Below are positions 577 through 19,608 of a DNA stretch of 64,000 nucleotides, in pieces (within the stretch, counting starts at the first letter, position 1; the number at the start of each line of letters is the position of its first letter). The stretch is from the IMG/VR virus record IMGVR_UViG_3300023179_000074, positions 1 to 64,000 of that record; one strand, 5' to 3'. Made by a program: the position numbers and the translations under genes. The notes under the pieces are model-generated. The model was not told the DNA's origin and did not search any database. It saw only the letters and a program-made list of their open reading frames with translations. The stretch comes from a virus.

Positions 577-2595
577 TTATGGGTAATTAAACGAAATATA
601 TGATACGCCTAGTGTTTGACCTGCAGCATTAAATGTAGAAGTAAATATGCTTCCTGTTGACGTGAATTTAAATCCAAATGTTTCCCCGTCTGTATATCTT
701 TGCTGTAAGTAATTTATCGCCATCCATATATTTCCGTTTTTATCTTTAATATATAAGAGAGCTGGAGCATTATCTACAGGGATGGGGTTATCTCCGTTAA
801 AGTAAAATACACCTGTATTTCTCGGTGAAGGTTCAGAAGCAATATTAATAGATCCTGCAGGTGAATCAACACCACCGGGGGCATTTGATACATCGCTTAA
901 GCTATATTCAAAATTTACAGGTGTACATGTAGGAGTAGGTGTCTGAGTTCGGGTTGGTGTAATACTAATTGTAGGTGTTTGCGTTAATGTAGGTGTTATT
1001 GTCGGCGTCTGAGTTCGGGTTGGTGTGATACTAATTGTAGGTGTAATCGATATAGTAGGTGTTATTGTCGGCGTCTGAGTTCGGGTTGGTGTAATACTAA
1101 TTGTAGGTGTTAATGTCGGTGTAATACTAATTGTAGGTGTAATCGATATAGTAGGTGTTATTGTCGGCGTCTGAGTTCGGGTTGGTGTAATACTAATTGT
1201 AGGTGTAATCGATATAGTAGGTGTAATCGTAGGTGTCTGTGTTAATGTAGGTGTAATACTAATTGTAGGTGTAATCGATATAGTAGGTGTTATTGTAGGC
1301 GTCTTAGTTCGGGTTGGTGTAATACTAATTGTAGGTGTAATCGATATAGTAGGTGTAATCGTAGGTGTCTGTGTTAATGTAGGTGTAATACTAATTGTAG
1401 GTGTAATCGATATAGTAGGTGTAATCGTAGGTGTCTGTGTTAATGTAGGTGTAATAGTAGCATCAGGAGTTTGAGTTATTGTCGGAGTAATACTAATTGT
1501 GGGTGTGATCGACGTGGTTGGAGTAATACTAATTGTAGGTGTAATTGATATTGTAGGTGTAACAGTAGGTGTTTGTGTTAATGTAGGGGTGATACTAATG
1601 GTAGGTGTAACAGTAGGTGTTTGTGTTAATGTAGGTGTGATACTAATTGTAGGTGTAACAGTAGGTGTTTGTGTTAATGTTGGGGTGATACTAATTGTAG
1701 GTGTAATTGATAAGGTAGGTGATTGTGTGGGGGTTTGAGTTAATGTTGGGGTAATTGAAATGGTAGGGGTATTTGTAGGCGTTTGTGTTAATGTAGGTGT
1801 TATAGTTGCCGTGGGTGTTATGGATATAGTAGGCGTAATAGACGAAGTAGGTGTCTGTGTTATAGTAGGTGTAACGGTGGGAGTTTCCGTAACAGTAGGT
1901 GTTATTGTAGGTGTGGGTGTCGGGGATAAAAATTGTGTGGGCGTAACAGTAGGCGTTTCTGTAACAGTAGGTGTTATAGTAGGTGTAAGCGTTTCAGTTA
2001 CCGTAGGTGTTATGGTGGGCGTTAAAGTTACTGTAGGTGTTGGGGTTTCAGTTGTAGTTGGTGTAAGTGTAAAAGAGGGTGTAGGCGTTATAGATGGCGT
2101 AACTGTAGGAGAAGGCCCTAAAATATAAAACGGTACATTAGCATGCATATAATACCCTGAAAGAGAGGAAAGTGTTTTAAGCGCGTTAAATGTAAACGGT
2201 ATATCCGGTCTAAATCCAATTTGTGTTGTGTTAGACGAATCTAATGTTCCGATAGCAGAGCAAAGCGTAGAAGAATAAAGTGAAATAGATCTGTCTTCAA
2301 AAGGATAGGTTATAAAATTATATGCGTTAAAGATATAGATTCCCTCTTCGGGTATTGAAGATGGTTCATTAAAATATATAGTAATAGGTGAAGAAACTTG
2401 AACATAATAACCTGAATTGGGTAAAAAAAAGTTTATTTGATTAAAATCTGCAGGTATACCGGGTATGTACCCTAGCTGTGCATTTCTATCTTCTGTGTAA
2501 CCTACAGCTCTTACTATATTACCAAAACAAGAAATTGCTGTAAGTACAGTATTACTATATGTAAAAAAATTATATGGACCGGTTAAAGTTTTCAT
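577..2595 (-). CDS. Thr-Pro-rich (mucin-like) adhesion fibre protein
   Basis: A 672-residue protein in three parts. Residues 1-155 hold two tandem copies of a roughly 75-residue module, each with YNF(F/I)TY near the start and SGYY(V/M) near the end. Residues about 158-559 form a very long stalk of hexapeptide units such as TPTISI, TPTLTQ and TPTRTQ. Residues 560-672 are a globular tip module related to 258-572 and more distantly to tips in three other fibre genes. There is no catalytic motif. Its stop-start overlap with 2595-3131 marks one operon. The stalk resembles extended O-glycosylated mucin linkers, and a glycosyltransferase cassette lies at 9702-16922. Receptor binding or virion decoration is inferred. 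Confidence 0.75.
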   Translation of the reverse strand: MKTLTGPYNFFTYSNTVLTAISCFGNIVRAVGYTEDRNAQLGYIPGIPADFNQINFFLPNSGYYVQVSSPITIYFNEPSSIPEEGIYIFNAYNFITYPFEDRSISLYSSTLCSAIGTLDSSNTTQIGFRPDIPFTFNALKTLSSLSGYYMHANVPFYILGPSPTVTPSITPTPSFTLTPTTTETPTPTVTLTPTITPTVTETLTPTITPTVTETPTVTPTQFLSPTPTPTITPTVTETPTVTPTITQTPTSSITPTISITPTATITPTLTQTPTNTPTISITPTLTQTPTQSPTLSITPTISITPTLTQTPTVTPTISITPTLTQTPTVTPTISITPTLTQTPTVTPTISITPTISITPTTSITPTISITPTITQTPDATITPTLTQTPTITPTISITPTISITPTLTQTPTITPTISITPTISITPTRTKTPTITPTISITPTISITPTLTQTPTITPTISITPTISITPTRTQTPTITPTISITPTISITPTLTPTISITPTRTQTPTITPTISITPTISITPTRTQTPTITPTLTQTPTISITPTRTQTPTPTCTPVNFEYSLSDVSNAPGGVDSPAGSINIASEPSPRNTGVFYFNGDNPIPVDNAPALLYIKDKNGNIWMAINYLQQRYTDGETFGFKFTSTGSIFTSTFNAAGQTLGVSYISFNYP
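918..2120 (-). repeat. 18-bp-based tandem array encoding a Thr-Pro stalk
   Basis: About 1.2 kb of direct repeats based on 18 bp (six codons) encode TPTxxx units. Larger blocks recur almost identically; for example, plus-strand gttcgggttggtgt occurs five times between about 948 and 1325. High identity between blocks suggests recent expansion or homogenisation by recombination. Confidence 0.9.
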
Positions 2596-3131
2596 TAAAA
2601 ATTAACTTCCCCGTCAACAAATAAACCGGAATATTGGATTGGACCTCCAGGTGTAAGACTAAAGCCAAATAATTGACCTATTCTATTACTTGAAAATGTA
2701 ACGAACATTCTCAAAACACCGCTAACCTTAATTAACATTATACTTCCTATTCCGAAAGGGTCATTACCGTTATAATAAAGCGTTTCATTCGCAGAAGATG
2801 TAGTTATAGCAATACCATCCTGAACGACAACGTTAGGATAATTACCAACAATAGACCTTAAAAATATAGGTGAGGGTGTTATAGTAGGAGTAGGTGTTAG
2901 CGTAGGTGTACGTGTAGGTGTAGTAGTAAGAATAGGTGATTTTGTCGGTGTTATAGTAATAGTAGGTGTAATTGTCGGTGTATTAGTAATAGTAGGTGTT
3001 ATAGTAGGTGTTGGTGTAAGCGTCGGTGTTATCGAGGGGGTAGGTGTTATAGTAGGGGTGGGGGACGGTAGAATAGGTATAACTCTATCATTACCTATAT
3101 TCTTATTAATTTTAAATAAAAAGTTTTTCAT
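2595..3131 (-). CDS. Short Thr-Pro fibre protein with tip module
   Basis: A 178-residue protein with a short basic N-terminus of about 20 residues, a Thr-Pro stalk at about 20-88, and a C-terminal module of about 87 residues. The tip contains [14 protein letters not shown], an [13 protein letters not shown] motif and a GEVNF end. It is very similar to the tip of 8103-9662, so the two genes share a domain by duplication or exchange. The one-base overlaps with both neighbours indicate one transcript. The role as a small accessory fibre is inferred from its architecture. Confidence 0.7.
2868..3070 (-). repeat. Short Thr-Pro-encoding tandem repeat
   Basis: About 200 bp of degenerate 12-18 bp direct repeats encode TPT-type units. 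It is the shortest of the five arrays and the least homogeneous at DNA level. Confidence 0.8.
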
Positions 3132-3132
3132 A

Positions 3133-4743
3133 TTAATTTAATGTTACCGGTATGCCTAACAATGGTGATTTGGTGTTATCTGGTTTTAAAACATTTAATA
3201 ATAGTGATTGAATATCAAAAATTTTATTAAAGGCTCTATTAATTATATTGTTTGAGACAATTTCATTAGCACCTATATAAAATGAAAGATCTTGCTCGAA
3301 ATAAATTGAATTAAGTTCGAAAGGTAAAAGATAACGCGAACCTCTAAAAATAGGATTGCCTCTATTATCCTTTACGGCTAAAAACTTACCTATAATCTGA
3401 TCTCTTAATCTCATATGATTGATTATAATTTTAGATATAGTTTTGTTGAATATCCAATTTTGTAAGTATTCATCTTTGTTAATAACAAGCTCATCGTAAT
3501 TATATACATCAAAATTTCTTACTGCTAAAATATCATATAAATTTAAATTATCGTAAAAAAGACCAAACTTACCTGTATTGCCAAATTTTGTAAATACTAG
3601 ATTTTTATCGCAACCTATAGCTGATGTTGAACCAAATGCTGTAATTATTTCATTAGGCACATCATACTTAAAAAGATATAATAAATATTTTCCAATATTA
3701 TCATTAGGGTCACTAACAAATCTTTTATATATATTTCTATTAGATGCTAAATAAAAAACATTTGTATTGTTTTTTGAAAAGACGATTTTATTAAAAGATT
3801 CGTTTTCTAGCTTAAAAATATTTAAATCAAATTTTTCTTTTGATTGAAAATTATTACTATATCTAAAAATAAAATTATCATTAGTTAAAATATAGGATCT
3901 TCCTGTATAATCAATACCTATATCGATGGGATAAGAAGAAGCTAAATCTACATTTAGTCTATATGTTTGTATCCAATTGAAATTTAAATCATATTCTTTA
4001 ACACATAAATTACCTGAATCAAGAACTTGTAAAATATTATTATAAACAGCTATTCCTCTGGGGGAGTTAAATTCGGATTTCGAAAATGAAGTGCCGAAAT
4101 TACCGATAGAATCGACATATATTAAATTATTTCTCAATACATTATTATCCGTGGAAAAGCCGGATATATCGTATTTTATAATTTGATTTAATTTAGAATC
4201 GACAGCAAATAAATAAGTTTCGTTGGCTGCAAGTGCGGTAAGCGATTTAAAGATAACACCAAACCCAGGGTTAACTTCCGAAGTAGTATACACGTTATCA
4301 AAATACGTACCGCTAAAATCAAAATTATAAGCTCTCAATGCGGTGTTATAGCCTGCAAACGCAGTGAACTGATCTTTATTAATATTTTTGACAAGAACCA
4401 TTACGTTTGTATTATCTACACCTGTATAAGAAGGTTGTGTCGAAAGAGGTACAAATTGACTCGTGCTTGCGCCATAATAAAAAGTAACATTCGTATCATT
4501 ACCTGTAATTCCGGCAATAGCAGTAGAAGAGATAGGTATAAGATTTGACGAAATAAGAGTTTGTTTGTATAGGTAAAGAAAATTATCGTGAAGATATTTA
4601 ATTTTTAAATTTAGAAGACTACTTGAAACTGTATCGTTTGCTTGTATTTTTATTTCCTCAATACTTTTAGGTAATTCGAGTATACTATCTAAATATCTAT
4701 CAAAAACAATATTATTTTGTAATGCCTCTTCTGTTATATTCAT
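3133..4743 (-). CDS. Virion protein with NHL-like beta-propeller
   Basis: A 536-residue protein. The N-terminal ~80 residues are helical and polar. The middle shows NHL-type blade patterns, for example [20 protein letters not shown] followed by KEYDLNFNW, and later [16 protein letters not shown]-type propellers usually bind proteins or glycans. The C-terminal ~100 residues are helix-rich and may anchor it in the baseplate. It overlaps the upstream gene by a TAATG-type junction. Similar propeller signatures occur in 4743-8090 and 22759-25224, so this phage uses several propeller proteins. A baseplate or fibre-attachment role is inferred; no enzyme motif is visible. Confidence 0.6.
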
Positions 4744-7700
4744 TAATTACTCCATTTAATTTTATTTAATTTTGTATATCCAGGTACAGAATTATTAAGA
4801 AGATTTATAATTCTTTTTTCTAATTCTATTTTAAGTTCAGGATCAGTAATACCACTGTTTCTTATTGTTAGATTATATTGTGCTGACTTCGAACCGGGAT
4901 TGCTTATTTTGAAGAATCGTTCTATTTCTTCTACGTAATTTCTCATACCGCACGCGACGTCAAATCTCATATCCCTTATATCCATGCCTTTTCTAGTATG
5001 CATAAAAATATCAAAGTCGTATAGAGGTTTACTGTATAAGTAGAGATTTTTTATTTTTAAATTATCTACTAAAAATGAATTATTTTTAAGATAGGAAAAT
5101 AAAGGAATCGAAAATGTGTAGTTAGATGATCCTATTAAAAAAGGTCTTTGAATTAAATTACTGAATTTATATTTTCTAGGTTTAAATGTGCTAGTGCCTT
5201 TTATTTGCCCATCAACAAAGAGCTCCATAATACCGTTATCCGCATCGAAACGTATAGCAAAATTATGATATCCCACGTCTAACGAAGAAAGACTAAAAAT
5301 AATTTCTGACTCAGCTGTATCATTAGAATTAAAAACATTAATAAGTTTTGCTTTAAGATTAAGATTACTATTGCCATATCTTGATTTTACAAACGATCTT
5401 AAGAAATTTGAATTAGAGAAGTTTGAAGCATTAGAAGTAATGCCAGAATAAAGAGTATTAGATACTAAATTACCATTAACATCGTATTTTTTATATTTTA
5501 TATTCTTATTAGAAGAACCTAGATAAGACGTAATTATAGCGTATTGATTATAATTACCTTCACTAAAATCGGCAGCTATATCTACTTTAAAATTTTTATA
5601 TTCGTTATCTGCTACACCGGATAATATAAAACTTCTATCTAAAGTATATTTTGCAAAATTGTTATTATTGTATAATAACCAAACATTTCCATCAAAATCA
5701 ATTGTAAAGTCGTTTATTACAGTATTAGATCTAAATGCGGTTGTAGTTTGTAGTTGCGTGGTGTCCCATGATAATACGTTTTTTCTATTTTCAGTCAGAA
5801 ATAGTATTTTATCACCTATTCTTTCTGATTTTATTCCATTTGTAAAGTAAAGCTTTTGATTATATATGTTTACTGTTGAGCTAGAATTTAAATTTAAAAA
5901 TCCTATGTTAGGTGCAAATGACTGTGTTAACTGTGATTCAGTAATTACATTAGATTTTAAATTTAACTGAAGGACCCGTTTACTACCTGGCGTATTTTCA
6001 ATTAACGCATATGCATATTCTTCATCATAATCTAAACTAATTAAATTTTTAAGCTTAAATGCACCGGGTGGAGTACTTTTTCTTGTTTCAGCAAATGATA
6101 TATTATATCTTCTAAAGGAATTATCGTTAAAAATTAAATAAAAATCGTTAAGCCCTTGTAATCTTATAATACCTTTAAGCTCTGAATCAAATCTAATATT
6201 ATTAAGGGAATCAAAACTAATATTAGTTACATTTATAGAACTTAAATTGTTTATAAAAAATGTAGGGGTAACAAGATTAGTATTAAAAATACCGAATCCG
6301 TCTCTATCATAATTACCTATGATTTGATATCCAAGAGGCTCATTCCAATCTGTACTGAAAGCATCAAAAATAAGAGTAAATTGTCCTGAATCTTGAATAG
6401 CAGATAAATTACTTGTAATACCATACCTATCGCCTTCAAATGAATATATATTGGCTTGATCAACTGAAGGAAGAACGTTTGAACCATTAGCAAATTTATA
6501 ATATGGTATTTTTTTATCTATTAGTTTTTCAGATATGGATTTAATAAAGTCTTCTGTATCTTTAGGCCCGTAGTGATGGTAGGCGTAATAAGTGCCTTTT
6601 TCAAAAATTAAATCGGAAGGTTTATCGAATACCCCTACCTCACCGAAAATTTCTTGAGCTTTATCAACTAAACAATCAAAAATAGAAATATAACGTACCG
6701 CTTGAAGCTCTCTGGAAGTTAAAGCTTTAAAAAAACTAGTAATTCTTGGATTATAATATCTATCAACCCAAATAGGTTTTACATTTATATCACGATTACC
6801 GGAAAGCCATGCGCATAAAAATTCTCCGGAATTTTCTTCCGAAGTATCGCCAAAATTAGTAGTATACTTGTAATCTGCTTTCTTTTTAAAGATTTTATCG
6901 GCTTTTATCGGGTGGTCACCGGCGATAGCACCCGCTTCTGTTAACCCTGAATCGTTGATATTAAGTCTTAAAAATGGATAGAAATTTTGTGGAATATGAA
7001 AGTAAGTAACTTTATCTTTTTTAAGAAGTATATTAGAAGTATAGCTTTCATAATTTAATGAGATGTTATCATTACCGTATTTTTGATTGCTTCCAGAAAA
7101 AATAGTTTGATAGTCTCTGAACTCTACATTATTTTCGTTAAAAAAAGGATTATTTCTAGATTGAAAATTTTCAGGGGTATTTGTATTTTTTAGAGAAATT
7201 GAATTTAAATTAAGCGATGAACCGGAGACATTAAAAAATTCATTATGAAAAAGTATGTTGGATTGAATTTGTTCATAACTTCGTTCACTATTAATATCTT
7301 GAGAATTCGTTTTAAAGTCTCTTTTATAACTAACCCATGGGTCATATAATAGAGTATTATTAGGTATTGGATTTCTAGAGCGTACTCTAAAAACAGATTG
7401 TACATTATAGGAGACATTAGTACCTGTAATAGGATCAACAAGCGTCAAAGATTCGGTATTAGCGTTAAAAAATACAAACTTAGCAATATCATTAATGTTT
7501 TTTAAAAGTATAATATAATCATATCTTCTATCGTAAACATAATAAAATATTTGCGGGCTATATGCACCAATACCATCTAACCCTGTATCTTTACAAAAAG
7601 ATAAATTACCGGTATAATCAACAGTTAAATATCTTATAATACCTTCATTTTCATGTAATATTTTACAGAACTTATTATCAAGCAATTCAATATCAAAAAG

Positions 7701-8090
7701 ATATTGATTATTGAAAGAGCTATAATCTCCAGATACTTTGAGAACAGCAGTATTAATAGTAACTGGGGGTTCACCTACCATCCAAAACCTGCTCGAAGGA
7801 GTAACAGACCCCACAGCATTAGCAGCAAAAAAAGTAGAGAATCCTTCGTCCTCTAATTTTGATAAGGTATCGATTTTTAAGCTACTTAAAATAAAATCTT
7901 TTTTTGATAAAAATAAACTTGAAAAATTATTAAGCTTATTATCGTTTAATTCTCTAAACGCTTCATTTACCGGTACATTAATACCCTGTTCGGTAAAATT
8001 AATAAATTCATTAAATTTTACCGTTTTATCGTATGTATAAGATGAAGAAAGACCAAAAAACGATGTTGAGGATAATGTATATACATCCAT
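4743..8090 (-). CDS. Large virion protein with propeller and LamG-like domains
   Basis: A 1115-residue structural protein. The middle has propeller-like segments (DFTIDFDGNVWLLYNNN). Around residues 930-1030 a pattern of YHNFAIRFDADNG then MELFVDGQIKG is typical of LamG/concanavalin-like jelly rolls, which often bind sugars. The last 100 residues are charged and helical. ATTAAATA lies 5 bases before ATG 8090. A GGAG motif before the next gene (3133-4743) suggests Shine-Dalgarno initiation inside the operon. It is probably a baseplate-proximal adhesion or fibre-connector protein. The exact T4 counterpart is not recognisable. Confidence 0.6.
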   Translation of the reverse strand: MDVYTLSSTSFFGLSSSYTYDKTVKFNEFINFTEQGINVPVNEAFRELNDNKLNNFSSLFLSKKDFILSSLKIDTLSKLEDEGFSTFFAANAVGSVTPSSRFWMVGEPPVTINTAVLKVSGDYSSFNNQYLFDIELLDNKFCKILHENEGIIRYLTVDYTGNLSFCKDTGLDGIGAYSPQIFYYVYDRRYDYIILLKNINDIAKFVFFNANTESLTLVDPITGTNVSYNVQSVFRVRSRNPIPNNTLLYDPWVSYKRDFKTNSQDINSERSYEQIQSNILFHNEFFNVSGSSLNLNSISLKNTNTPENFQSRNNPFFNENNVEFRDYQTIFSGSNQKYGNDNISLNYESYTSNILLKKDKVTYFHIPQNFYPFLRLNINDSGLTEAGAIAGDHPIKADKIFKKKADYKYTTNFGDTSEENSGEFLCAWLSGNRDINVKPIWVDRYYNPRITSFFKALTSRELQAVRYISIFDCLVDKAQEIFGEVGVFDKPSDLIFEKGTYYAYHHYGPKDTEDFIKSISEKLIDKKIPYYKFANGSNVLPSVDQANIYSFEGDRYGITSNLSAIQDSGQFTLIFDAFSTDWNEPLGYQIIGNYDRDGFGIFNTNLVTPTFFINNLSSINVTNISFDSLNNIRFDSELKGIIRLQGLNDFYLIFNDNSFRRYNISFAETRKSTPPGAFKLKNLISLDYDEEYAYALIENTPGSKRVLQLNLKSNVITESQLTQSFAPNIGFLNLNSSSTVNIYNQKLYFTNGIKSERIGDKILFLTENRKNVLSWDTTQLQTTTAFRSNTVINDFTIDFDGNVWLLYNNNNFAKYTLDRSFILSGVADNEYKNFKVDIAADFSEGNYNQYAIITSYLGSSNKNIKYKKYDVNGNLVSNTLYSGITSNASNFSNSNFLRSFVKSRYGNSNLNLKAKLINVFNSNDTAESEIIFSLSSLDVGYHNFAIRFDADNGIMELFVDGQIKGTSTFKPRKYKFSNLIQRPFLIGSSNYTFSIPLFSYLKNNSFLVDNLKIKNLYLYSKPLYDFDIFMHTRKGMDIRDMRFDVACGMRNYVEEIERFFKISNPGSKSAQYNLTIRNSGITDPELKIELEKRIINLLNNSVPGYTKLNKIKWSN

Positions 8091-8095: not shown

Positions 8096-8103
8096 TATTT
8101 AAT
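8096..8103 (-). promoter_or_regulatory. T4-type late promoter, ATTAAATA
   Basis: ATTAAATA lies 5 bases before ATG 8090, at the tail end of the upstream fibre gene. Confidence 0.5.
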
Positions 8104-9662
8104 TAAAAATTGACATCTCCATTAGTAAACACACCCGTATATTGGACGGGTCCATTAGGTGTAAGGCTAAACCCAAATGGCTGTCCTATCCTATTACCCC
8201 CAAAAGTAACAAATGCTCTAATTACTGAGCTAACCCTAATTACCATCGAAGCGCCAATACCGAATGGATCGTTTCCATTGTAATAAAGCGTTTCATTAGA
8301 GCTTGTAGTATTCATAGAAATACCGTCTGCTATAACTGTATTAGGATAATCACCTACCAAGGACCTGCTAAACGGATTCAACGTTGGGGTAACAGAAGGG
8401 GTTATTGTTGGTGAGAGAGTAATCGTTATTGAAGGAGTTATCGTTACTGTCGGTGTATTTGTAGGGGTTATAGATATAGTTGGCGTGGGAGATATAGTTG
8501 GGGTGAGTGAAGGTGTAATTGAAGGTGTTTGTGTTATTGTAGGTGTAATACTTTGTGTGATAGATGGTGTTATTGATGTTGTGGGTGTTAAAGAAACTGT
8601 GGGTGTTTGTGTAGGTGTTTCTGTTATTGTAGGGGTATTTGTAGGTGTTAAGGACGGTGTAATCGTTGGCGTATTAGTTAGAGTTGGTGTTATTGTGGGA
8701 GTAGGTGTTTCAGTTATTGTAGATGTTATGGTAATTGTAATGGAAGGTGTAATTGTAGGAGTGATAGTTGGTGTTTGTGTTATCGGTGGAGTATTGGTTA
8801 TGGTTGGTGTAATTGTAGGGGTAGTAGTTGGGGTTTCAGTAATAGTAGGCGTTATAGATATAGTTGGGGTAACAGAAGGCGTTATAGATATAGTCGGAGT
8901 AATAGTTGGTGTTATAGAGGGTGTAGGGGTAGGTAGAGCAATTGCGCTTTTTGGTACAATGAGAGAAGGATCTGCACTTAAAAGTAAGAAGTTAGAAACA
9001 AAATGAGTATTATTTTCTGAAATTTCAAATACTTCTAAACTTTTATCAAAAGCTTCATCTATTTTAGTAATTTGAGCAGAATTAATAAGTCTAAATTCAT
9101 CGTAATCAAAAAGTGTATCAGGTACGATAGATAGAGTAAATTTAAAATAATTAGAAACTACATTTCCATTCAAAACTGTTACTGTTGGGTGATAAGTAGT
9201 AATTTTATTATTTCTTGGGTAATAAGTATGGCTTATATTAGTAGAATTTGGTGTACCGGGATCTAAAGTCGCTACTGTAGGTAAAACGTTTAAAACTAGA
9301 TTTTTTTCTATATTTAAAATATCTTTTTCGTCATCAAAATTATAAACTATTTTAAGAGTGGGAAAATAACTATTATCTATTGAAGAGGGTATAAATGTTA
9401 AGGTTGTTGCACCTTTAAAAGTACCAAGATAAGCACTTAAACTTGTATTATTAATAGGGTAGCCCCAGGGAAAGAATAAGCCGCCGTTTGCAGTTACGGG
9501 GTACACGAAACCACCAACTGTTTGATCGAAAAAGCTTCCATTTGCACAAGCTGGCCAAACTATATTTGTTTCATATACTGGATCTAAAAACAGATAGTGA
9601 TTAATTATATTTGGATAACCTAGTTGTTGATAACTAGATAAAACGTAATTAATTACATTCAC
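8103..9662 (-). CDS. Thr-Pro fibre protein with globular head and tip module
   Basis: A 519-residue protein starting at GTG 9662, with AGTAAATA 5 bases upstream. Residues 1-235 form a beta-rich globular head with no family I can name. Residues about 240-427 are a Thr-Pro stalk. Residues about 430-519 are a tip module with [27 protein letters not shown] and GDVNF, nearly the same as the tip of 2595-3131. It lies directly downstream of the glycosyltransferase cassette. The stalk is a plausible acceptor for sugar addition. An adhesion or receptor-binding role is inferred. Confidence 0.7.
   Translation of the reverse strand: MNVINYVLSSYQQLGYPNIINHYLFLDPVYETNIVWPACANGSFFDQTVGGFVYPVTANGGLFFPWGYPINNTSLSAYLGTFKGATTLTFIPSSIDNSYFPTLKIVYNFDDEKDILNIEKNLVLNVLPTVATLDPGTPNSTNISHTYYPRNNKITTYHPTVTVLNGNVVSNYFKFTLSIVPDTLFDYDEFRLINSAQITKIDEAFDKSLEVFEISENNTHFVSNFLLLSADPSLIVPKSAIALPTPTPSITPTITPTISITPSVTPTISITPTITETPTTTPTITPTITNTPPITQTPTITPTITPSITITITSTITETPTPTITPTLTNTPTITPSLTPTNTPTITETPTQTPTVSLTPTTSITPSITQSITPTITQTPSITPSLTPTISPTPTISITPTNTPTVTITPSITITLSPTITPSVTPTLNPFSRSLVGDYPNTVIADGISMNTTSSNETLYYNGNDPFGIGASMVIRVSSVIRAFVTFGGNRIGQPFGFSLTPNGPVQYTGVFTNGDVNF
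8381..8940 (-). repeat. Thr-Pro-encoding tandem repeat array
   Basis: About 560 bp of 12-18 bp direct repeats encode TPTITP and TPTISI-type units with scattered variants. It is less homogeneous than the 918-2120 array. Confidence 0.85.
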
Positions 9663-12079: not shown

Positions 12080-12759
12080 AGAATCTGTGAAAGTTTAATT
12101 GTTTTTTCGTTAAATGGTCCATTATCATGAATCATATAAGGATTAGTTTTTATTGTGTGTTTATTATCTTCAATTATAATATCGTCTTTTGAATCTAAAG
12201 TGCTAAAAAATATTTTTCTTTCTTGATCAAGTTTTATATCTTCTGAAAGTAAATACTCAATAGCCCATACAGCTTGATCATCATAAGGGCGGAAATCTTT
12301 AGTTATAATATTTTCCAAATGTTTAATTATATGCTCTGTTAATCCCATATATAAACCAGAATTTAAATACATATAAGGAGATAGTTTAGGTTTATTATTA
12401 TAAAGTTGTGATTCGTTAATAGGTGGCCACAAATTAATCTCTGAACAAAACAAAATATTACAATTAAAGATAGTAAAATCGTTTACTATATTTGAAGGGT
12501 CTCTGTAGAAATTTGTATCCGTTGCATCGCTAAAAATAATATATTTATAGTTTAATAATTTTTCTTTTATAAAATCTAACAAATAAACAATTTTATATTT
12601 GTATAGTTTATCGTAATATGACCCGCCTTGAACTAAATTATTGAATCTCGCAACGTATATATCTTCTTTATTAAAATATTTTAGCCCATTATTATAATAA
12701 ATTGGTTGATAGTATTCAGGATAGTCAAATAATACCGTGAGTAAAGCAATATCCTTCAT
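12076..12759 (-). CDS. PLOD-like glycosyltransferase
   Basis: The chosen start is ATG 12759 (MKDIALLTVLFDYP), because it gives the ATGA overlap used throughout this cassette; a longer frame begins at 12780. The protein of about 227 residues has YIIFSDATDTNFY, which resembles the acidic metal site of the glycosyltransferase domain of procollagen lysyl hydroxylases and related GT-A enzymes. GLYMG and PYDDQAVW motifs follow. In that family the enzyme adds hexose to hydroxylated side chains. Here only sugar transfer to an unknown acceptor is supported. Confidence 0.6.
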   Translation of the reverse strand: MKDIALLTVLFDYPEYYQPIYYNNGLKYFNKEDIYVARFNNLVQGGSYYDKLYKYKIVYLLDFIKEKLLNYKYIIFSDATDTNFYRDPSNIVNDFTIFNCNILFCSEINLWPPINESQLYNNKPKLSPYMYLNSGLYMGLTEHIIKHLENIITKDFRPYDDQAVWAIEYLLSEDIKLDQERKIFFSTLDSKDDIIIEDNKHTIKTNPYMIHDNGPFNEKTIKLSQIL

Positions 12760-13382
12760 TGTTTCATTTTTAAGAGCCATGCTGTATCTTCAAACTCTTC
12801 AGAGAGATTATAGGGTAGATCTACTAAATTATAGTTGATTAAAGATTCTTGAACATCTTTTAGCATAATCTCTGCCCAGTTCCATATACGATTTTTTATC
12901 TTAATATTAAATGTATTTTCGTCTTTTGCATAATCATGAGCACCAATAATATCACCGGGTTTTAGAAATTTACTAAAAAAATTAAATTCAAACGCTTTAT
13001 TACCACCATCACAAAAAACAGCTATTCTTTTATTCTTACCTTCAAAATTAAAAATTTCATTTACAAGCTTAGTATCTGAAATTAAATCTTGCTTTAAAAA
13101 GATAAAATTATGTTCTTCAGCTAGCGATTTTGCCGCGTCTATATAAGGGTCGAAAGAATATATCTTTATATTTTTGTTAAGTTTTTTACGTGCAGTGTAT
13201 AGCATGCTTGTAAACCCCCCGTGATGTGTCCCGATTTCTACAACAATATCAATATTAATTTTTTCAAATAAGCTATAAACTGCGTAATAAGCATCAGGAT
13301 TTTGCATTGTAAATCCGTTGCCTGTTTCATCATGTACGCACCAACCCCTTTCAATGCTTTGTTTTTTTTCTTCAATATTCAT
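12756..13382 (-). CDS. SAM-dependent methyltransferase (CmcI/Methyltransf_24-like)
   Basis: A 208-residue protein. VVEIGTHHGGFTSML is the SAM-binding loop, YSFDPYID supplies the acidic residue at the end of strand 2, and VFCDGGNK with GDIIGAHDY are conserved in CmcI-type and Methyltransf_24 proteins. It overlaps both neighbours by ATGA junctions. Enzymes of this type often methylate or help tailor sugars in glycan clusters, which fits the adjacent transferases. The substrate is inferred only. Confidence 0.7.
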   Translation of the reverse strand: MNIEEKKQSIERGWCVHDETGNGFTMQNPDAYYAVYSLFEKINIDIVVEIGTHHGGFTSMLYTARKKLNKNIKIYSFDPYIDAAKSLAEEHNFIFLKQDLISDTKLVNEIFNFEGKNKRIAVFCDGGNKAFEFNFFSKFLKPGDIIGAHDYAKDENTFNIKIKNRIWNWAEIMLKDVQESLINYNLVDLPYNLSEEFEDTAWLLKMKQ

Positions 13383-13993
13383 AATATTGAATTATTTATA
13401 AAAAGAACATCGTCTTGTATATGATAATGATGCTGAGGGTGTCTTAATTGTTGCAATGTTTCTTTTTTAGAAAAATTAATTGAGTTCATGTAGTCTTCAA
13501 CATCTTTGTAAAGTGGTGCGTTAATATTAAACTCTTCTATAGATAATTCTAATAAAATACCTTTAGCTTTTTTTACAACATTACTACCACCTTTTAAAAT
13601 ATCTAACTCTGAGCCTTGTACGTCAATTTTAATAAAATCAAAAATTCTATCATTTAATACATCATCTAATGTAAATGTCTGCTCCTGCATAATAACAATA
13701 TCATCATCCTTAAAAAACATACTTTTTTCTCTGTAAATAGAATTACCGGTACAAAGAGGTTCGGATTTTCTTATATAATAAGGTACTGTTTTGACAGTAT
13801 CGCTAAAAAGCCCTATAAAATATTCAACATTTAAATCTTTTAAAGCAGGCTCGCAGAATTTATTACCTTCTATTAAAAAATATTTACTATTATTGAAAAT
13901 ATTCTTACTTTCATGATAAAACTGGCCAACGTTTGCGCCAATGTCTAAAATTGTTTTAGGGTCAAAATATTTTTTTATTAATTCTAAATTCAT
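13379..13993 (-). CDS. FkbM family methyltransferase
   Basis: A 204-residue protein with ILDIGANVGQFYHES as SAM motif I, FLIEGNKFCEPAL as motif post-I, and FIKIDVQGSELDILKGG, the signature of FkbM-type O-methyltransferases. These enzymes commonly methylate sugar hydroxyls in capsule, O-antigen and glycoprotein pathways. It is coupled by a 4-base overlap to both neighbours. O-methylation of a sugar added by the surrounding transferases is the simplest role, but this is inference. Confidence 0.85.
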   Translation of the reverse strand: MNLELIKKYFDPKTILDIGANVGQFYHESKNIFNNSKYFLIEGNKFCEPALKDLNVEYFIGLFSDTVKTVPYYIRKSEPLCTGNSIYREKSMFFKDDDIVIMQEQTFTLDDVLNDRIFDFIKIDVQGSELDILKGGSNVVKKAKGILLELSIEEFNINAPLYKDVEDYMNSINFSKKETLQQLRHPQHHYHIQDDVLFINNSIL

Positions 13994-14961
13994 GCTTCCA
14001 CTACCTTTTCTAAAAAGTTTAAAAGATAATTACAATCAAAATATTTGCTTAATTTATTGTTAATAAACCAGGGTTGTGATAATTTAGCTTTATATTTTTC
14101 TTCATTATTATACAGTTCACGGACATCATTTACTGCCTCTTCAAAAGAAGAATATTTATGTACGTTAATAAAACTCTCTTCATTAAAGCCCTCCTTGAGT
14201 ACGTTTTGATTACCGTAAAAAATGGGTATGGTGTTAGCCGCCATAGCGTGAACTATTTTTTCTTGTGTGACATTAACAGTATTTGTATACTGAAAAGCTA
14301 TATTAAACTTACAATCTTTAAAAAAATTTATCTTGTCCCTATAAACTAGTCCATCCATTCTTCCAGTATAATTATTATTGATAAATTTATATTTGTTAAG
14401 ATCTAACCCCGGGGTGCCTCTCCAAGGCCCAGACGATCGAATCGGTGCAATAGTTTCAAGTAAATCAAAAATTTTAGCCCTATCATCATTATGTGAGCCC
14501 TGTACTATACTACAAAAATATTTTTTGTCCGTTATTATTTTTTCAGGATCTTTAGGTTCAACCAACCAATTAAAGGGTGTATCAAATATTCTGCTTTCAT
14601 CAAAAAGTGTCCAGCAATCTAATACACATGTAGGGAATCTTAGATATCTAGGATGGTCTATTTCTTCTACCCCTAAAACATAATTTTTATCAGATTCATT
14701 TAAAATACCATAATAATCTTTAAAAATTTCTCCGGATATAAAAATCTTTTTACAGTTTTTATACATTCCTATTTCTTTATAATTGTCTCTTAAAAAATCA
14801 TCGTAATCATTAACATTTGCGTGAAGATTGGTCCATAAAACTATATCCGGGGTTTTTCCATCAGGAATAACATGATATTTTTTATTTAAAACAAATCTAA
14901 AATAATTAATCCATGAATACATTTGAAAAAAGTTTGCTCTTGAAAGTCTAACTAATTTCAT
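13990..14961 (-). CDS. GT10-like fucosyltransferase
   Basis: A 323-residue protein whose second half matches the GT10 (alpha-1,3-fucosyltransferase) core: FNIAFQYTN, then VTQEKIVHAMAANTIPIFYG and FNEESFINV. In GT10 enzymes this region binds GDP-fucose. The N-terminal half (DIVLWTNLH, FISGEIF) fits the acceptor half. TGTAAATA lies 6 bases before ATG 14961, so a transcript can start here. No membrane anchor is visible, so it acts in the host cytoplasm. Donor specificity could differ from GDP-fucose. Confidence 0.7.
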   Translation of the reverse strand: MKLVRLSRANFFQMYSWINYFRFVLNKKYHVIPDGKTPDIVLWTNLHANVNDYDDFLRDNYKEIGMYKNCKKIFISGEIFKDYYGILNESDKNYVLGVEEIDHPRYLRFPTCVLDCWTLFDESRIFDTPFNWLVEPKDPEKIITDKKYFCSIVQGSHNDDRAKIFDLLETIAPIRSSGPWRGTPGLDLNKYKFINNNYTGRMDGLVYRDKINFFKDCKFNIAFQYTNTVNVTQEKIVHAMAANTIPIFYGNQNVLKEGFNEESFINVHKYSSFEEAVNDVRELYNNEEKYKAKLSQPWFINNKLSKYFDCNYLLNFLEKVVEA

Positions 14962-15000: not shown

Positions 15001-15633
15001 TTAGGTAATCTGTCTAAAATACTCGTTAATCAACTCTCCATCACTTCTGAACGGTATTCCTTTACCAAATATATAAGAAGGTATTTCATTTTCCCAAAAT
15101 ATACATAGCTCTTTTCCTTTATAGTTGTTTCTTATTTGTTCTGAATTTTTATTCGTTTCAATAAATGAATATTTTGGAAACAAAAATAAGTTATCTTCTT
15201 TTACATCAAAAATAGTCTTGTGATGTGAGTTACCTAGAAAATTATTACCATTTAAATAATTAAATTCATCATATTTTGAAGGAATGGCAATAAATCCTCG
15301 TTTAGATATTTTTTGAAGAAGTTCAATTAAATCTAAAGGATTAAACACATCTTCAAGAGTATGTGAACATATAGTAAAATCAAAAATTCCATTATTTTTT
15401 ACGTAATCAAAAATAGAGTTATACTGATTTTTATTTTCAATATCAATTTCAAATTGTAAAACGTCGGGTTTGTTAATTTTTATTGAATCTGCTATTATTT
15501 TACACTCCGGATAAGACCAGTAATAAGCTGCAGCACCTATATCGATAGATTTAAAATTGTTAGTTTCTATTATTTTTTTAACTCTATTTCTTATTCCATC
15601 TATATCATTATTATAAAACCATTCAGTAATCAC
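15001..15633 (-). CDS. Class I SAM methyltransferase-like protein
   Basis: A 210-residue protein from GTG 15633. FKSIDIGAAAYYWSYPE resembles motif I, LQFEIDIEN the acidic strand-2 end, and FDFTICSHTLEDVFNP the post-motif II of Methyltransf_11-type enzymes, where CSHTLED replaces the usual SxHVLEH. AATAAATA lies 5 bases before the GTG. A sugar or protein methylation role follows from its neighbours. The acceptor is unknown. Confidence 0.6.
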   Translation of the reverse strand: MITEWFYNNDIDGIRNRVKKIIETNNFKSIDIGAAAYYWSYPECKIIADSIKINKPDVLQFEIDIENKNQYNSIFDYVKNNGIFDFTICSHTLEDVFNPLDLIELLQKISKRGFIAIPSKYDEFNYLNGNNFLGNSHHKTIFDVKEDNLFLFPKYSFIETNKNSEQIRNNYKGKELCIFWENEIPSYIFGKGIPFRSDGELINEYFRQIT

Positions 15634-15638
15634 AGAAT

Positions 15639-15646
15639 TATTTATT
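15639..15646 (-). promoter_or_regulatory. T4-type late promoter, AATAAATA
   Basis: AATAAATA lies 5 bases before GTG 15633 and supports that GTG as the start. Confidence 0.45.
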
Positions 15647-16922
15647 AACTTACTCTATTACCAATAACACCAGTGATAGGTTCTGCCCATCCTTTAGAAA
15701 GACTGTGCGGCCATACTATCCAGCTATGAGGCATCTTCTCACTATTAAATTCTCTCCAAACCTTACAATAACCATCCGGGTCTTTCATCATTCTATCAAT
15801 TTCTTCTTTATCTGCATCTTTGCGATATATATCTTGGCCTTTTTCATCTTTAAAAGCAACACACCAGAAATTATAGTCTTTCTCAGGCACTTGATCATAA
15901 CGAATATCTATGCAATGTTTAAAAATGCTTAGTAAAGAATCTTCAAACTCTTCTTCCGAAAGATTGTCATTAGGATTTGGTGCATATTTATTTTCTAAAG
16001 TGTGTCTTTGAATAGCCCTCTTCTTAAAGCAAAGACCGGAGTAGCGTTCATAATCTCTTAGGGTTCGCTCTTTACCGAAGTCAAATTTTCCAAAATCAAT
16101 ATCTTTCTTTTCATTGTCCATTTCAAATAATTTTCTATTACGAAGATGTGATTTATTATTCATTTCACCCCATAGAGGAATATCATCCCAGTGTTTTGTA
16201 CGGCCTTTACGAGTGTATTCATGCCACATAACAACTATATGAGGATGGAATAAATCGTACCCGTGTGTGTAAGATCTTACTGCTAAATTAATCTCTTCTC
16301 CATGAAAATAATAATACGGGTCATAGGGTACCTCTTTAATCCATTTACCAAGCGTAAAGATAAAATGGGCAGATACAAAGCGAGCGGGTACCGGGCAGCT
16401 TAATTCTTTATACTCATCAATAGATGCGGGTAAAAAAAATACAGCGCCTTCGGGAATAAATCTATCAAAATTCATTTTCCATGGAACGTTAATTCTTGCT
16501 TGTGGATCATTATCCGGATCAAAACTTGAAATGTAGGCTGTAAGAAGAGGTTTTTTGTGACCTTTTTTCTGTAACTGCTTAATCATATCAATACACTTAA
16601 CATCCCAATTTTGTGCAAAACGGTGATGACTGTCTAATTGAAGATGGTACTTTTCGTTTTTATAAAGAGATTGAATTTTATTTCTAGCCCAGCATGTGCC
16701 TTGACTTTCTTTATAAGGAATATCTAGTACGCGAAAACGTTTATCTGTAGTAAATTCTTCTAAAGATTCCTTTTCATCTCTTTGCCAAGCAATTCCAAAT
16801 CTTAAATTTTCAGGATATTTTGCATTCTTAATACAATCTCTTAAAGTAGGTAATAGCTGAGGATCCCTATAAGAAGCAATTGATATAAAAATAGTATTTT
16901 TTGAGTTAATCTCTTTGGTCAT
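15645..16922 (-). CDS. GT60-type polypeptide GlcNAc-transferase-like enzyme
   Basis: A 425-residue protein. It opens with FISIASYRDPQLLPTLRDC and carries GTCWARNKIQ, LQLDSHHRF and FFHGEEINLAVRSYTHGYD. These match the Glycosyltransferase (GlcNAc) family, GT60, in order. Known eukaryotic members attach GlcNAc to hydroxyproline of Skp1 or to Thr of mucins. The DSHH segment is the metal-binding DxD-like site. It lies next to the Thr-Pro gene 16957-19608 and is the first gene of the cassette. The idea that it primes sugar on Thr-Pro stalks is an inference. Family confidence is good; acceptor confidence is low. Confidence 0.75.
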   Translation of the reverse strand: MTKEINSKNTIFISIASYRDPQLLPTLRDCIKNAKYPENLRFGIAWQRDEKESLEEFTTDKRFRVLDIPYKESQGTCWARNKIQSLYKNEKYHLQLDSHHRFAQNWDVKCIDMIKQLQKKGHKKPLLTAYISSFDPDNDPQARINVPWKMNFDRFIPEGAVFFLPASIDEYKELSCPVPARFVSAHFIFTLGKWIKEVPYDPYYYFHGEEINLAVRSYTHGYDLFHPHIVVMWHEYTRKGRTKHWDDIPLWGEMNNKSHLRNRKLFEMDNEKKDIDFGKFDFGKERTLRDYERYSGLCFKKRAIQRHTLENKYAPNPNDNLSEEEFEDSLLSIFKHCIDIRYDQVPEKDYNFWCVAFKDEKGQDIYRKDADKEEIDRMMKDPDGYCKVWREFNSEKMPHSWIVWPHSLSKGWAEPITGVIGNRVS

Positions 16923-16956: not shown

Positions 16957-19608
16957 TTATCTGCTTGTTAATCTTATTGCGTTTAGATATGCATTAGATC
17001 CAGTGCAAAGAGAGGCAAGAATAGTAAGCCTACCACTATCTCTTGGAACTAAGTTATTAATTCTAAACACATTGTAATTATTTGCACTTAGCGAAGGTAT
17101 ACCTGATCCGGGTCCGGAAGTTTGAACACCGTAAGAACTTGTACCAGAATTATAACTTACTACATATTCAGTTTCACTTAAAAGAGCCGCAGAAGCTGAT
17201 CCAAAAATACTTAGATCATATATTTTATTTGTATTTAGGTTGTAGAATTCTAATTCAAAATACGAATTTCCATAAATGTAATCTTCAGTTGCCGATTCTA
17301 TGGCTAAGTTTCCTAAGTAAGCAGGGCTAGGGAATAATAGCCCTGGGTTAGTCGGGGCCCCGTCAGCACCTGTATAGTTACTAGCGCTTAAACCAAAGCC
17401 AGTTGATGTATTAGTTGTATCAACAAGATTATTTACATCATTTACTAGTTCAGTTATATTGTTCCAATACTTCGAATTTGAATCAATCGTAGTTTGATCA
17501 GTGCTTAATCCTAAATCTACTAAAATTTCAATAGGTACTCTGGTTTGCGTTACTGTAGGTGTTGGTGTTTGCGTCGGTGTTTCGGAAATTGTAGGTGTTA
17601 CAGTCACAGTTGTAGATGGTGTTAGCGTTATGCTAGGGGTAATTGTAATTGTGGGTGTCGGTGTCATGGATGTAGTAGGAGTAATAGAAGGTGTTTGGGT
17701 TACCGTAGGTGTAAGTGTTTCTGTTGGTGTTACAGATATTGTAGGTGTGGGGGAGAAAGTCGGGGTTATAGATGGTGTTGGCGAATTAGATGTTGTTATT
17801 GTTGGTGTCACGGTTGGGGTTACAGAAGGTGTAGGGGTAACAGGAGCAAAGTTATAAATCGCTCCGTCAGCGAATACATTAAAATAAACTGTACCAGTAT
17901 CCGTGGGTGAGAAACCAAAAGTAGTTCCATCTCTTGTATAGTCGTAAACAACATACATATAAATAACATTTTGATATTTTAACACCATTGTGGATTCAGA
18001 TGTAACGGTGGAAGGACCTGCGTTAAAATATAAAGTTGATGTGTTATCTGGAGCGCTAATAAAGATTTCCTGGCCTTCTTGTGTTTTATTACCCGGGCCG
18101 GATAACTTATATAAGAAAGGAGTAATAGTTATTGTAGGTGTTACTGTTATCGTTGGTGTTATGGATGGTGTAATAGATATCGTTGGTGTTATGGAAGGTG
18201 TAATCGATATCGTTGGTGTTATGGAAGGTGTTATAGTTACTGTTGGTGTTTGAGAGACAGTAGGAGTAACTGTTAGAGTTACAGTCGGGGTAACTGTAGG
18301 TGTTTCTGTAACAGTAACTGTAGGAGTTATTGTTGGAGTAATAGAAGTAGTGGGCGTTATAGTGGGTGTAATGCTAGAAGTGGGTGTAACCGTTGGAGTT
18401 AATGTAGGTGTAGAAGAGATGGTAATTGAAGGTGTTATAGAAATTGTCGGTGTCGGTGTTGGCGAAATAGGTATTATAGGCGTTTCGGTAATAGTAGGTG
18501 TTATAGAAATTGTCGGTGTCGGTGTAAGTGAAGTAGTAGGTGTAATTGACGGAGTAATAGATATAGTAGGTGTTATCGTAGGTGTAATAGAAATTGTTGG
18601 AGTAATAGAAGTTGTTGGAGTAATAGTAGGCGTTATTGAAGGGGTTATCGTTGGCGTTGTTGTTGTAGTAGGTGTAATAGAAATAGTAGGCGTAATCGAG
18701 GGGGTGATAGATATGGAAGGTGTTATTGTAGGGGTTACCGTTGGCGTTGTTGTTGTGGTAGGTGTAACTGCAGATGTATTCGTAACAGTTGGGGTAGCAG
18801 TTGCAGTTTTTGTGATAGTAGGTGTTTGGGTTCTAGTAGGTGTAATAGAAATTGTCGGTGTTATGGTAGGTGTAATAGTTACAGTGCATGTTGGTGTAAG
18901 GGTAACGGTTGGTGTAATGGTAGGAGTGGGAGTTAAAATAAAAGAATTTACATTTAAATTTTTAACGTAAAGATTAGTAGGGTATGGGCCGTTTGCAAAA
19001 CCTAAACAGGGAAATACAGTAGGTGGTAATCTATAGGGTAATTTAAAATTTACATAATTTGTAAAGCTAGATCCATCATTATGATCTATAATAATACGAT
19101 CGCCAATATCAGTTATACGAACTCTAAATACTGTATAATCACTACTAGCAATATTTGTATAAAGAGTTAATGGTTTTTTAAACGATGTAGATGTTAAGTT
19201 TTCTGATCTATAGAGTAAGTCATAGTTTCTATCTTCACTACTACGAATAGATATTGTATTAGGCAGTGGGGTGGAAAATCCGTTTAATTGCAAAATATCA
19301 GAACCAAAATTACCGGTTATGTCAAAGCCTATACCCAATGCACCTTTTTTAATTCCATTAAAAAAAGTTAAAGCGGATGAGGAAAGAGCTGTTAAGCTAG
19401 TATAGGCTAACCCCGGGCCCGGCGAACCACCCGATAAATAATCTATACTAGCGTCTACAAAAAATAAGCAGAATCCTTCTGAGCCGCTTAGTTGTGTGCC
19501 GATACATTTATATTCGAAAGAAATAATACAATCACGCGTAGTGTCAAGCGTATCGAGCCTGTATAAAACAGATGTATCGTTATCATGATTTAAATTATAA
19601 AAAGCCAT
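16957..19608 (-). CDS. Lectin-headed Thr-Pro fibre protein
   Basis: The chosen start is ATG 19608, just after the upstream stop at 19610-19612; a frame from 19662 would overlap that gene by 53 bases. The ~883 residues read as follows: 1-222, an L-type lectin-like jelly roll (EGFCLFFVDAS, GPGLAYTSL, LGIGFDITGNFG); 224-497, a Thr-Pro stalk; 497-589, a tip-type module with STLYFNAGP and TTFGFSPTDTG; 589-689, a second stalk; 689-883, a beta-rich C-terminal domain ending YLNAIRLTSR, like carbohydrate-binding jelly rolls. It is probably a sugar-binding adhesin on the virion and a likely glycosylation target. Confidence 0.75.
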   Translation of the reverse strand: MAFYNLNHDNDTSVLYRLDTLDTTRDCIISFEYKCIGTQLSGSEGFCLFFVDASIDYLSGGSPGPGLAYTSLTALSSSALTFFNGIKKGALGIGFDITGNFGSDILQLNGFSTPLPNTISIRSSEDRNYDLLYRSENLTSTSFKKPLTLYTNIASSDYTVFRVRITDIGDRIIIDHNDGSSFTNYVNFKLPYRLPPTVFPCLGFANGPYPTNLYVKNLNVNSFILTPTPTITPTVTLTPTCTVTITPTITPTISITPTRTQTPTITKTATATPTVTNTSAVTPTTTTTPTVTPTITPSISITPSITPTISITPTTTTTPTITPSITPTITPTTSITPTISITPTITPTISITPSITPTTSLTPTPTISITPTITETPIIPISPTPTPTISITPSITISSTPTLTPTVTPTSSITPTITPTTSITPTITPTVTVTETPTVTPTVTLTVTPTVSQTPTVTITPSITPTISITPSITPTISITPSITPTITVTPTITITPFLYKLSGPGNKTQEGQEIFISAPDNTSTLYFNAGPSTVTSESTMVLKYQNVIYMYVVYDYTRDGTTFGFSPTDTGTVYFNVFADGAIYNFAPVTPTPSVTPTVTPTITTSNSPTPSITPTFSPTPTISVTPTETLTPTVTQTPSITPTTSMTPTPTITITPSITLTPSTTVTVTPTISETPTQTPTPTVTQTRVPIEILVDLGLSTDQTTIDSNSKYWNNITELVNDVNNLVDTTNTSTGFGLSASNYTGADGAPTNPGLLFPSPAYLGNLAIESATEDYIYGNSYFELEFYNLNTNKIYDLSIFGSASAALLSETEYVVSYNSGTSSYGVQTSGPGSGIPSLSANNYNVFRINNLVPRDSGRLTILASLCTGSNAYLNAIRLTSR
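17541..17842 (-). repeat. Thr-Pro-encoding tandem repeat, C-terminal stalk
   Basis: About 300 bp of short direct repeats encode the second stalk of the lectin-headed protein. Units vary more than in the 918-2120 array. Confidence 0.8.
18118..18936 (-). repeat. Thr-Pro-encoding tandem repeat, main stalk
   Basis: About 820 bp of 12-18 bp direct repeats encode ITPTISITPS-type units. One repeated block, encoding ITPSITPTIS, occurs three times in tandem near 18150-18230. Confidence 0.85.

What the first reader, a model, noticed from the sequence alone, without database searches (positions are those of the whole stretch)
577..19608. Mucin-like fibres flanking a glycosylation cassette: candidate glycosylated adhesion system
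Four proteins carry long Thr-Pro stalks (577-2595, 2595-3131, 8103-9662, 16957-19608), and between them sit eight glycosyltransferase or methyltransferase genes. The arrangement resembles eukaryotic mucins with their modifying enzymes. A dTDP-sugar reductase (51827) and another transferase (57967) are elsewhere. Sugar-coated fibres might bind lectins or glycans on host cells or particles.
Basis: inference. Interest (0 to 1): 0.85.

Follow-up and report, generated by a model that had tools for sequence, protein, structure and literature searches.

The report
Phage mucin-like fibres with sugar-coating genes
An uncultured contractile-tailed phage encodes mucin-like threonine-proline fibre stalks in the same operon as an enzyme shaped like those that start mucin glycosylation in animals, plus a swappable set of sugar-decorating enzymes, so it probably builds its own sugar coat on its tail fibres.

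Summary
Four proteins carry Thr-Pro stalks (about 40% Thr) and eight glycosyltransferase/methyltransferase genes lie between them, in one nearly gap-free run that continues into baseplate genes. The gene beside the 16957-19608 fibre is a GT60 (PF11397, 245 bits against a cut-off of 21) with the invariant DSH motif. Its predicted fold matches mucin-type polypeptide GalNAc-transferases (top 45 PDB hits). That fibre's N-domain has an L-type-lectin fold.

GT60 occurs in 14 of 37 phage records picked only for Thr-Pro repeats and in 0 of 42 random records. Conversely, 29 of 34 GT60 records of at least 60 kb have the repeats. Of the three GenBank phages with a GT60 match, the two whose whole genomes were scanned have the repeats. 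One, XacN1, has published glycoproteins, carriers not named in the main text.

Across 19 loci the cassette ends (GT60, HtrL-GT2) are constant, while the interior swaps among about 25 families, including sulfo- and carbamoyltransferases. I conclude that this is a phage-encoded mucin-type O-glycosylation system acting on its own fibres, with exchangeable glycan tailoring. That sugars are attached to stalk Thr, and what they do, is inferred. Host-surface modification remains the main rival.

The parts
577..2595 (-). Fibre protein: N-terminal domain, 417-aa Thr-Pro stalk (window 889-2139), C-terminal cap domain
3133..4743 (-). Conserved neighbour protein of the fibre locus, function unknown
   Evidence: synteny; no PHROG or Pfam hit
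4743..8090 (-). Large structural-type protein conserved next to the second Thr-Pro fibre in relatives
   Evidence: synteny; no PHROG or Pfam hit
8103..9662 (-). Second fibre protein: conserved N-domain, 197-aa Thr-Pro stalk, cap domain; marks the far end of the cassette
9702..11369 (-). HtrL/YibB domain fused to a GT2-like domain; constant far end of the cassette
   Evidence: PF09612 E 2.9e-15, weak PF00535; constant in relatives
11369..12079 (-). Putative glycosyltransferase; no significant Pfam or PDB hit; family recurs in other cassettes
12076..12780 (-). PLOD-type glycosyltransferase domain; nearest PDB is the mimivirus collagen glucosyltransferase R699
   Evidence: PF25342 E 5.8e-15; 9dyt E 7.6e-11; PMC9546862
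12756..13382 (-). Methyltransf_24-like methyltransferase (below the Pfam cut-off)
   Evidence: PF13578 E 1.5e-4
13379..13993 (-). FkbM-type methyltransferase
   Evidence: PF05050 E 1.3e-14
13990..14961 (-). GT10 (fucosyltransferase-type) glycosyltransferase
   Evidence: PF00852 E 8.9e-10
15001..15633 (-). Probable methyltransferase (weak)
   Evidence: PF13489 E 0.056, below cut-off
15645..16922 (-). GT60 polypeptide N-acetylglucosaminyltransferase homologue; proposed initiating enzyme; constant near end of the cassette
   Evidence: PF11397 E 1.7e-72; invariant D97-S98-H99; fold = ppGalNAc-T
16957..19608 (-). Main fibre protein: L-type-lectin-fold N-domain (18889-19608), two Thr-Pro stalks (18082-18957, 17509-17865) with a cap domain between them, C-terminal domain
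19610..28583 (-). Adjoining tail/baseplate genes (conserved 19610 and 22759 proteins, PKD protein 25221, gp6-like wedge 26219, gp25-like wedge 28080) in the same gene run
51827..52702 (-). RmlD/epimerase-type sugar-nucleotide enzyme, possibly supplies a donor
   Evidence: PF04321 E 7.6e-16
57967..58632 (-). Additional GT2-like glycosyltransferase, target unknown
   Evidence: PF13712 E 3.9e-9

Best explanation
This is a phage-encoded mucin-type O-glycosylation system for the phage's own tail fibres. Proposed working: late in infection, in the host cytosol, the GT60 enzyme (15645-16922) moves an alpha-linked HexNAc, most likely GlcNAc from host UDP-GlcNAc, onto Thr of the (Thr-X)n Thr-Pro stalks made from the same operon. 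The other transferases (PLOD-type, GT10, the 11369 gene, HtrL-GT2) lengthen or branch the glycan, and the methyltransferases cap it. The result is a stiff, protease-resistant, sugar-covered stalk holding a lectin-fold tip near the baseplate. The two end enzymes stay constant while the genes between them are exchanged between relatives, so related phages would display different glycans on a common stalk. Shown here: genes, gene run, enzyme family and predicted fold, genomic association, interior turnover. Inferred: the reaction on these stalks, the donor sugar, timing, location in the virion, and the biological benefit (shield or antigenic change, stiffness, or glycan-mediated attachment).
For: (1) GT60: PF11397 245 bits against a cut-off of 21; DxH motif (DSH) invariant in 57 phage homologues, the motif that sets GT27 and GT60 apart (PMC7185993); AlphaFold model pLDDT 89.9, whose 45 best PDB matches are all mucin-type ppGalNAc-Ts. 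GT60 enzymes of T. cruzi put alpha-GlcNAc on Thr of mucins (PMC3769586, PMC9472816). (2) Association: GT60 in 14/37 records chosen only for Thr-Pro repeats against 0/42 random records, Fisher p 4.9e-6. Thr-Pro in 29/34 GT60 records of at least 60 kb against 0/42 random. HtrL 11/37 against 0/42. (3) GT60 has a Thr-Pro fibre gene directly upstream in most of the window's clade, and that clade of 20 is entirely Thr-Pro positive. (4) Cultured phages: only 3 of 50,697 GenBank phage records match this GT60. The two genomes scanned, XacN1 and RAS14, are rich in Thr-Pro repeats (51 and 22 pattern hits), and all three also have HtrL-GT2. The XacN1 authors report at least two glycoproteins detected by proteomics (PMC5852040). 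(5) The genes are co-directional and nearly gap-free with structural genes and have no predicted transmembrane segments. (6) The main fibre's N-domain is an L-type-lectin fold.
Against: No sugar on any stalk has been seen; the XacN1 main text does not name which proteins are glycosylated. 23 of 37 Thr-Pro phages lack GT60 on the record, so the stalks can exist without it (or the records are incomplete). Two GT60 lineages have no Thr-Pro repeat in long records; G041, from one of them, has Thr/Ser-rich collagen-like repeats instead. Bacterial GT60 genes exist whose substrates are unknown. Random controls are not matched for lineage or habitat. Fold similarity does not fix the acceptor or the donor.
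Confidence: 0.74

Rival explanations
1. The cassette changes the host cell surface (O-antigen or LPS) during infection to block superinfection, and its place beside fibre genes reflects a shared 'host recognition' island.
For: Glycosyltransferases in the tail-fibre island of pelagimyophages were read this way (PMC7029224). Many interior enzyme types (GT25, FkbM, sulfo- and carbamoyltransferases) also occur in polysaccharide loci (established knowledge).
Against: The constant enzyme is a polypeptide-type GT60 with a ppGalNAc-T fold. The cassette proteins have no predicted transmembrane segment and no flippase or polymerase was found among them. The genes are interleaved with structural genes. 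The association is specifically with Thr-Pro repeats.
Confidence: 0.13
2. The Thr-Pro stalks are plain structural spacers, unmodified, and the sugar genes sit in the same variable island for unrelated reasons.
For: 23/37 Thr-Pro records lack GT60. The stalks show strict two-residue periodicity (5905 even against 169 odd Thr-Pro spacings), which suits a repetitive extended fold by itself.
Against: Strong two-way association with random controls at zero; GT60 next to the fibre gene in the clade; same pairing in the distant jumbo phages XacN1 and RAS14, and XacN1 glycoproteins are reported.
Confidence: 0.07
3. The GT60 glycosylates hydroxyproline in the stalks, like the Skp1 enzyme of Dictyostelium and Toxoplasma, not Thr.
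For: The same CAZy family contains the Skp1 enzyme Gnt1 (PMC6939170), and the stalks are Pro-rich.
Against: A prolyl-hydroxylase-type oxygenase (PF13640) is absent from the window's 78-kb record and from 35 of 41 records searched, including XacN1 and RAS14; the search worked in control genomes.
Confidence: 0.03
4. The transferases glycosylate phage DNA bases against restriction.
For: Known in other phages; one HtrL-GT2 relative weakly matches the TET-associated GT family (E 0.0025, below cut-off).
Against: No Tet/JBP oxygenase in 39 GT60 records (no positive control). No DNA-modification gene lies in the cassette. GT60 belongs with protein-modifying enzymes.
Confidence: 0.03

Closest known systems
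Mucin O-glycosylation in Trypanosoma cruzi and Dictyostelium (GT60 pp-alpha-GlcNAc-transferase acting on Thr-rich mucins)
   Same: Same enzyme family (PF11397/GT60), DxH motif, Thr-rich acceptor-like proteins
   Different: Phage-encoded and presumably cytosolic, without Golgi; acceptors are fibre proteins; modifying genes are clustered with the acceptor and exchangeable; activity not shown here
Virion glycosylation in mycobacteriophages (Freeman et al. 2023, seen only as cited in PMC11256854 and PMC12619734)
   Same: Phage-encoded glycosyltransferases linked to sugars on the virion
   Different: There the targets are capsid and tail-tube proteins; no mucin-like stalk is mentioned in the accounts read; the enzymes could not be compared here
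Xanthomonas phage XacN1 glycoproteins (PMC5852040)
   Same: Homologous GT60 (47% identity) and HtrL-GT2 (43% over the full length), many Thr-Pro stalk proteins, glycoproteins reported by proteomic analysis
   Different: Distant jumbo phage; the authors did not connect GT60 to Thr-Pro stalks in the main text; carbamoyltransferase and other genes stand in place of the window's interior genes
Pelagimyophage/cyanomyophage 'host recognition cluster' (PMC7029224)
   Same: T4-like phages with glycosyltransferases in a variable island with tail fibres
   Different: Dominant family there is GT8, interpreted as host O-chain modification; no Thr-Pro/GT60 pairing reported in the passages read
Mimivirus collagen glycosylation (L230, R699; PMC9546862)
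   Same: A virus encoding both a repetitive fibre protein and its protein-linked glycosyltransferase; the window's 12076 gene is nearest to R699 in the PDB
   Different: Acceptor is hydroxylysine of collagen; virus of amoebae

Membership tests
GT60 (PF11397) | Profile match above the curated cut-off | tested here: met
   245.3 bits against 21, E 1.7e-72
GT60 (PF11397) | DxH in place of DxD in a GT-A fold (GT27/GT60 hallmark, PMC7185993) | tested here: met
   D97-S98-H99 invariant in 57 homologues; fold matches GT27
GT60 (PF11397) | UDP-GlcNAc:polypeptide alpha-GlcNAc-transferase activity | not testable with these tools
   needs enzyme assay
Mucin-type glycoprotein | Long Thr/Ser/Pro-rich tandem region | tested here: met
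   T 34-41%, P 19-24% over 86-417 aa
Mucin-type glycoprotein | O-glycans on Thr/Ser | not testable with these tools
   mass spectrometry needed; XacN1 glycoproteins are indirect support
L-type lectin | Legume-lectin-like beta-sandwich fold | tested here: met
   model pLDDT 88.7; ERGIC-53/VIP36 best, E 6e-8, TM about 0.57
L-type lectin | Conserved Ca2+/sugar ligands | tested here: inconclusive
   D96 and N117 invariant, N100 of the expected metal motif not; ligands not mapped on the structure
Phage serotype-conversion (LPS-modifying) cassette | Membrane flippase and membrane-bound transferase genes | tested here: not met
   No predicted transmembrane segment in any of the eight cassette proteins (highest 19-residue hydropathy 1.14)
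DNA-base glycosylation module | Base-oxidising or hypermodified-base enzymes with the GT | tested here: inconclusive
   No Tet/JBP in 39 records, but no positive control rang; other base-modification routes not searched
T4-like contractile-tailed phage | gp6/gp25 wedge, sheath and terminase homologues | tested here: met
   nearest isolates are distant, TerL 40% or less

The most novel reading that the evidence does not exclude
A widespread, previously unrecognised phage system in which a mucin-type initiating transferase and an exchangeable glycan cassette give each phage its own 'glycotype' on lectin-tipped mucin fibres, analogous to O-antigen diversity in bacteria but on the virus particle.
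Probability: 0.45. Interest if true: 0.9.

Novelty: new variant of a known kind. Interest (0 to 1): 0.78.

Why it matters
If right, phages of at least two distant groups (T4-like freshwater phages and jumbo phages) make mucin-type glycoproteins, a modification usually thought of as eukaryotic, and vary its sugars by cassette exchange. It gives a concrete alternative to the reading that glycosyltransferases in phage tail-fibre islands act on the host surface, and it can be tested in cultured phages. It bears on phage adsorption, immune recognition in phage therapy, and the origin of GT60/GT27 protein glycosylation.

Tried and rejected
Megablast of the cassette against GenBank phages and tblastn of the main fibre found nothing. 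A PLOD-GT scan of viral contigs found no relatives by its exact peptide patterns; relatives appeared in loci already fetched. phmmer and profile searches of GT60 against PDB sequences found nothing, so the structural link rests on fold. The 11369 gene had no PDB hit. Hydroxyproline and Tet/JBP were tested and disfavoured. Collagen-like repeats as the general acceptor were rejected: among the 80 GT60 loci only two carry them within the fetched flanks, though Thr-Pro-negative G041 has some. The Freeman 2023 paper was not held.

Full report
What is there. The window is 64 kb of a 78,319-bp IMG/VR virus record from a T4-like contractile-tailed phage: gp6- and gp25-like wedge proteins, tail sheath, terminase and DNA polymerase are present, and isolated relatives are distant. 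On the - strand, 258-28583 is one run of genes with almost no gaps. It contains four Thr-Pro fibre proteins, eight transferase-type genes and baseplate genes. The stalks hold 433 Thr; T is 34-41% and P 19-24%. A related ~85-aa domain follows every stalk except the last stalk of 16957-19608, and also stands alone at 258-572.

The stalks are (Thr-X)n. Successive Thr-Pro pairs in the window's five stalk stretches are an even number of residues apart in all the commonest spacings listed. In 284 stalk segments from fetched loci the count is 5905 even to 169 odd, against 1313 to 1204 in shuffles. Segments are not independent, since loci overlap and relatives are included. Thr therefore occupies every second position, a regularity that either an extended structural repeat or a dense glycosylation array would explain.

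The enzymes. 15645-16922 is GT60 (PF11397). A literature source places GT60 with GT27 as polypeptide Ser/Thr glycosyltransferases and notes that both carry DxH in place of DxD (PMC7185993). The phage protein has DSH at 97-99, invariant in 57 homologues. Its AlphaFold model (pLDDT 89.9) matches ppGalNAc-T structures in all 45 best PDB hits (E from 1.5e-9, TM about 0.5, 10-18% identity). T. cruzi GT60 makes GlcNAc-alpha-Thr on mucins. The 12076 gene is nearest in the PDB to mimivirus R699, a glucosyltransferase acting on a protein-linked sugar, which fits a chain-extending role. GT10, FkbM and HtrL-GT2 complete the set; the Methyltransf_24 and Methyltransf_23 assignments are below cut-off. The fibre beside GT60 starts with a domain modelled at pLDDT 88.7 that is an L-type-lectin fold (ERGIC-53, VIP36). 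Sugar binding is not shown: only some of the expected ligand residues are conserved.

Association. Records were chosen in several ways. Selected only for TPTxTPTxTPT, 14 of 37 records of at least 40 kb have GT60 and 11 have HtrL_YibB, every one of them also GT60 positive. Random 14- and 15-mers gave 42 records of at least 38 kb: none has GT60, HtrL or Thr-Pro. Fisher p is 4.9e-6 for GT60 and 9.5e-5 for HtrL. Selected for GT60, 47 of 80 records have Thr-Pro, rising to 29 of 34 at 60 kb or more. Among tail-sheath relatives of at least 60 kb that were not in the GT60-selected set, five have both, three have neither, and one fragment has only Thr-Pro. The controls are not matched for lineage or habitat, so part of the signal may be shared ancestry. 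The tree needs at least 11 changes of the Thr-Pro label, but many short records are scored as lacking it only through incompleteness.

Exceptions. Five GT60 records of at least 60 kb lack the repeat. One has a GT60 identical to that of a positive record and is probably a fragment effect; the other four fall in two lineages. In G041, from one of these, I found Gly-Ser/Thr collagen-like repeats and a Thr-Gly-rich stretch, which would be alternative acceptors; this is suggestive only.

Cassette architecture. In relatives the order is gp6, PKD protein, p22759, p19610, Thr-Pro fibre, GT60, interior, HtrL-GT2, second Thr-Pro fibre, p4743. Between the constant ends, 19 loci (window included) carry about 25 gene families; three of the window's six interior genes have no BLAST-detectable counterpart in the other interiors. 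The cluster count is approximate, because single-linkage groups include HtrL fused to methyltransferases. Representatives match FkbM, GT25, GT10, PLOD-GT, GT4, two sulfotransferases and a carbamoyltransferase. This is what a glycan-tailoring island looks like.

Cultured cases. Only three GenBank phage records match this GT60: XacN1, RAS14 and CM1. All three have HtrL-GT2, and the two genomes scanned hold 51 and 22 Thr-Pro pattern hits. In XacN1 several Thr-Pro proteins lie in the region of the tail sheath gene. The XacN1 paper reports at least two glycoproteins by proteomic analysis and suggests the phage glycosyltransferases, including the GT60 gene ORF334, as makers (PMC5852040). The supplementary figure naming them could not be read. 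This is the nearest thing to experimental support and it is indirect.

Rivals. Host-surface modification is the published reading for glycosyltransferases in similar islands (PMC7029224); absence of membrane proteins, interleaving with structural genes and the polypeptide-type initiator weigh against it but do not exclude it. Hydroxyproline glycosylation is disfavoured because 2OG oxygenases of the family searched are missing in 35 of 41 records. DNA glycosylation is disfavoured, though that negative lacked a positive control.

Verdict. Virion glycosylation by phages is already known; mucin-type initiation on Thr-Pro stalks with an exchangeable cassette appears to be a new variant. My literature search covered only open-licence papers, so prior description elsewhere cannot be excluded.

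Noticed in passing
L475:932-2896 and L560 (XacN1 ORF350, ORF369, ORF370, ORF372, ORF384): XacN1 was described as lacking tail fibres, yet its genome has several large Thr-Pro stalk proteins, some of them close to the tail sheath gene.
   Followed up: partly
60239-60979: QueC homologue (PF06508, E 8e-55), hinting at 7-deazaguanine/queuosine chemistry in this phage.
   Followed up: no
L563:1-1200 and L568:2833: The GT60-positive, Thr-Pro-negative phage G041 carries Gly-Ser/Thr collagen-like repeats and a Thr-Gly-rich stretch, possible alternative acceptors.
   Followed up: partly
L005:14310-16649: In some relatives HtrL-GT2 is fused to a TylF-type O-methyltransferase (E 5.5e-30).
   Followed up: no
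L477-L555: GT60 homologues occur in many bacterial genomes (Paraburkholderia, Stenotrophomonas, cyanobacteria and others), some with Thr-Pro-rich stretches nearby; not tested against a control.
   Followed up: partly
25221-26219: PKD-domain protein next to the gp6-like baseplate gene, conserved in relatives.
   Followed up: no
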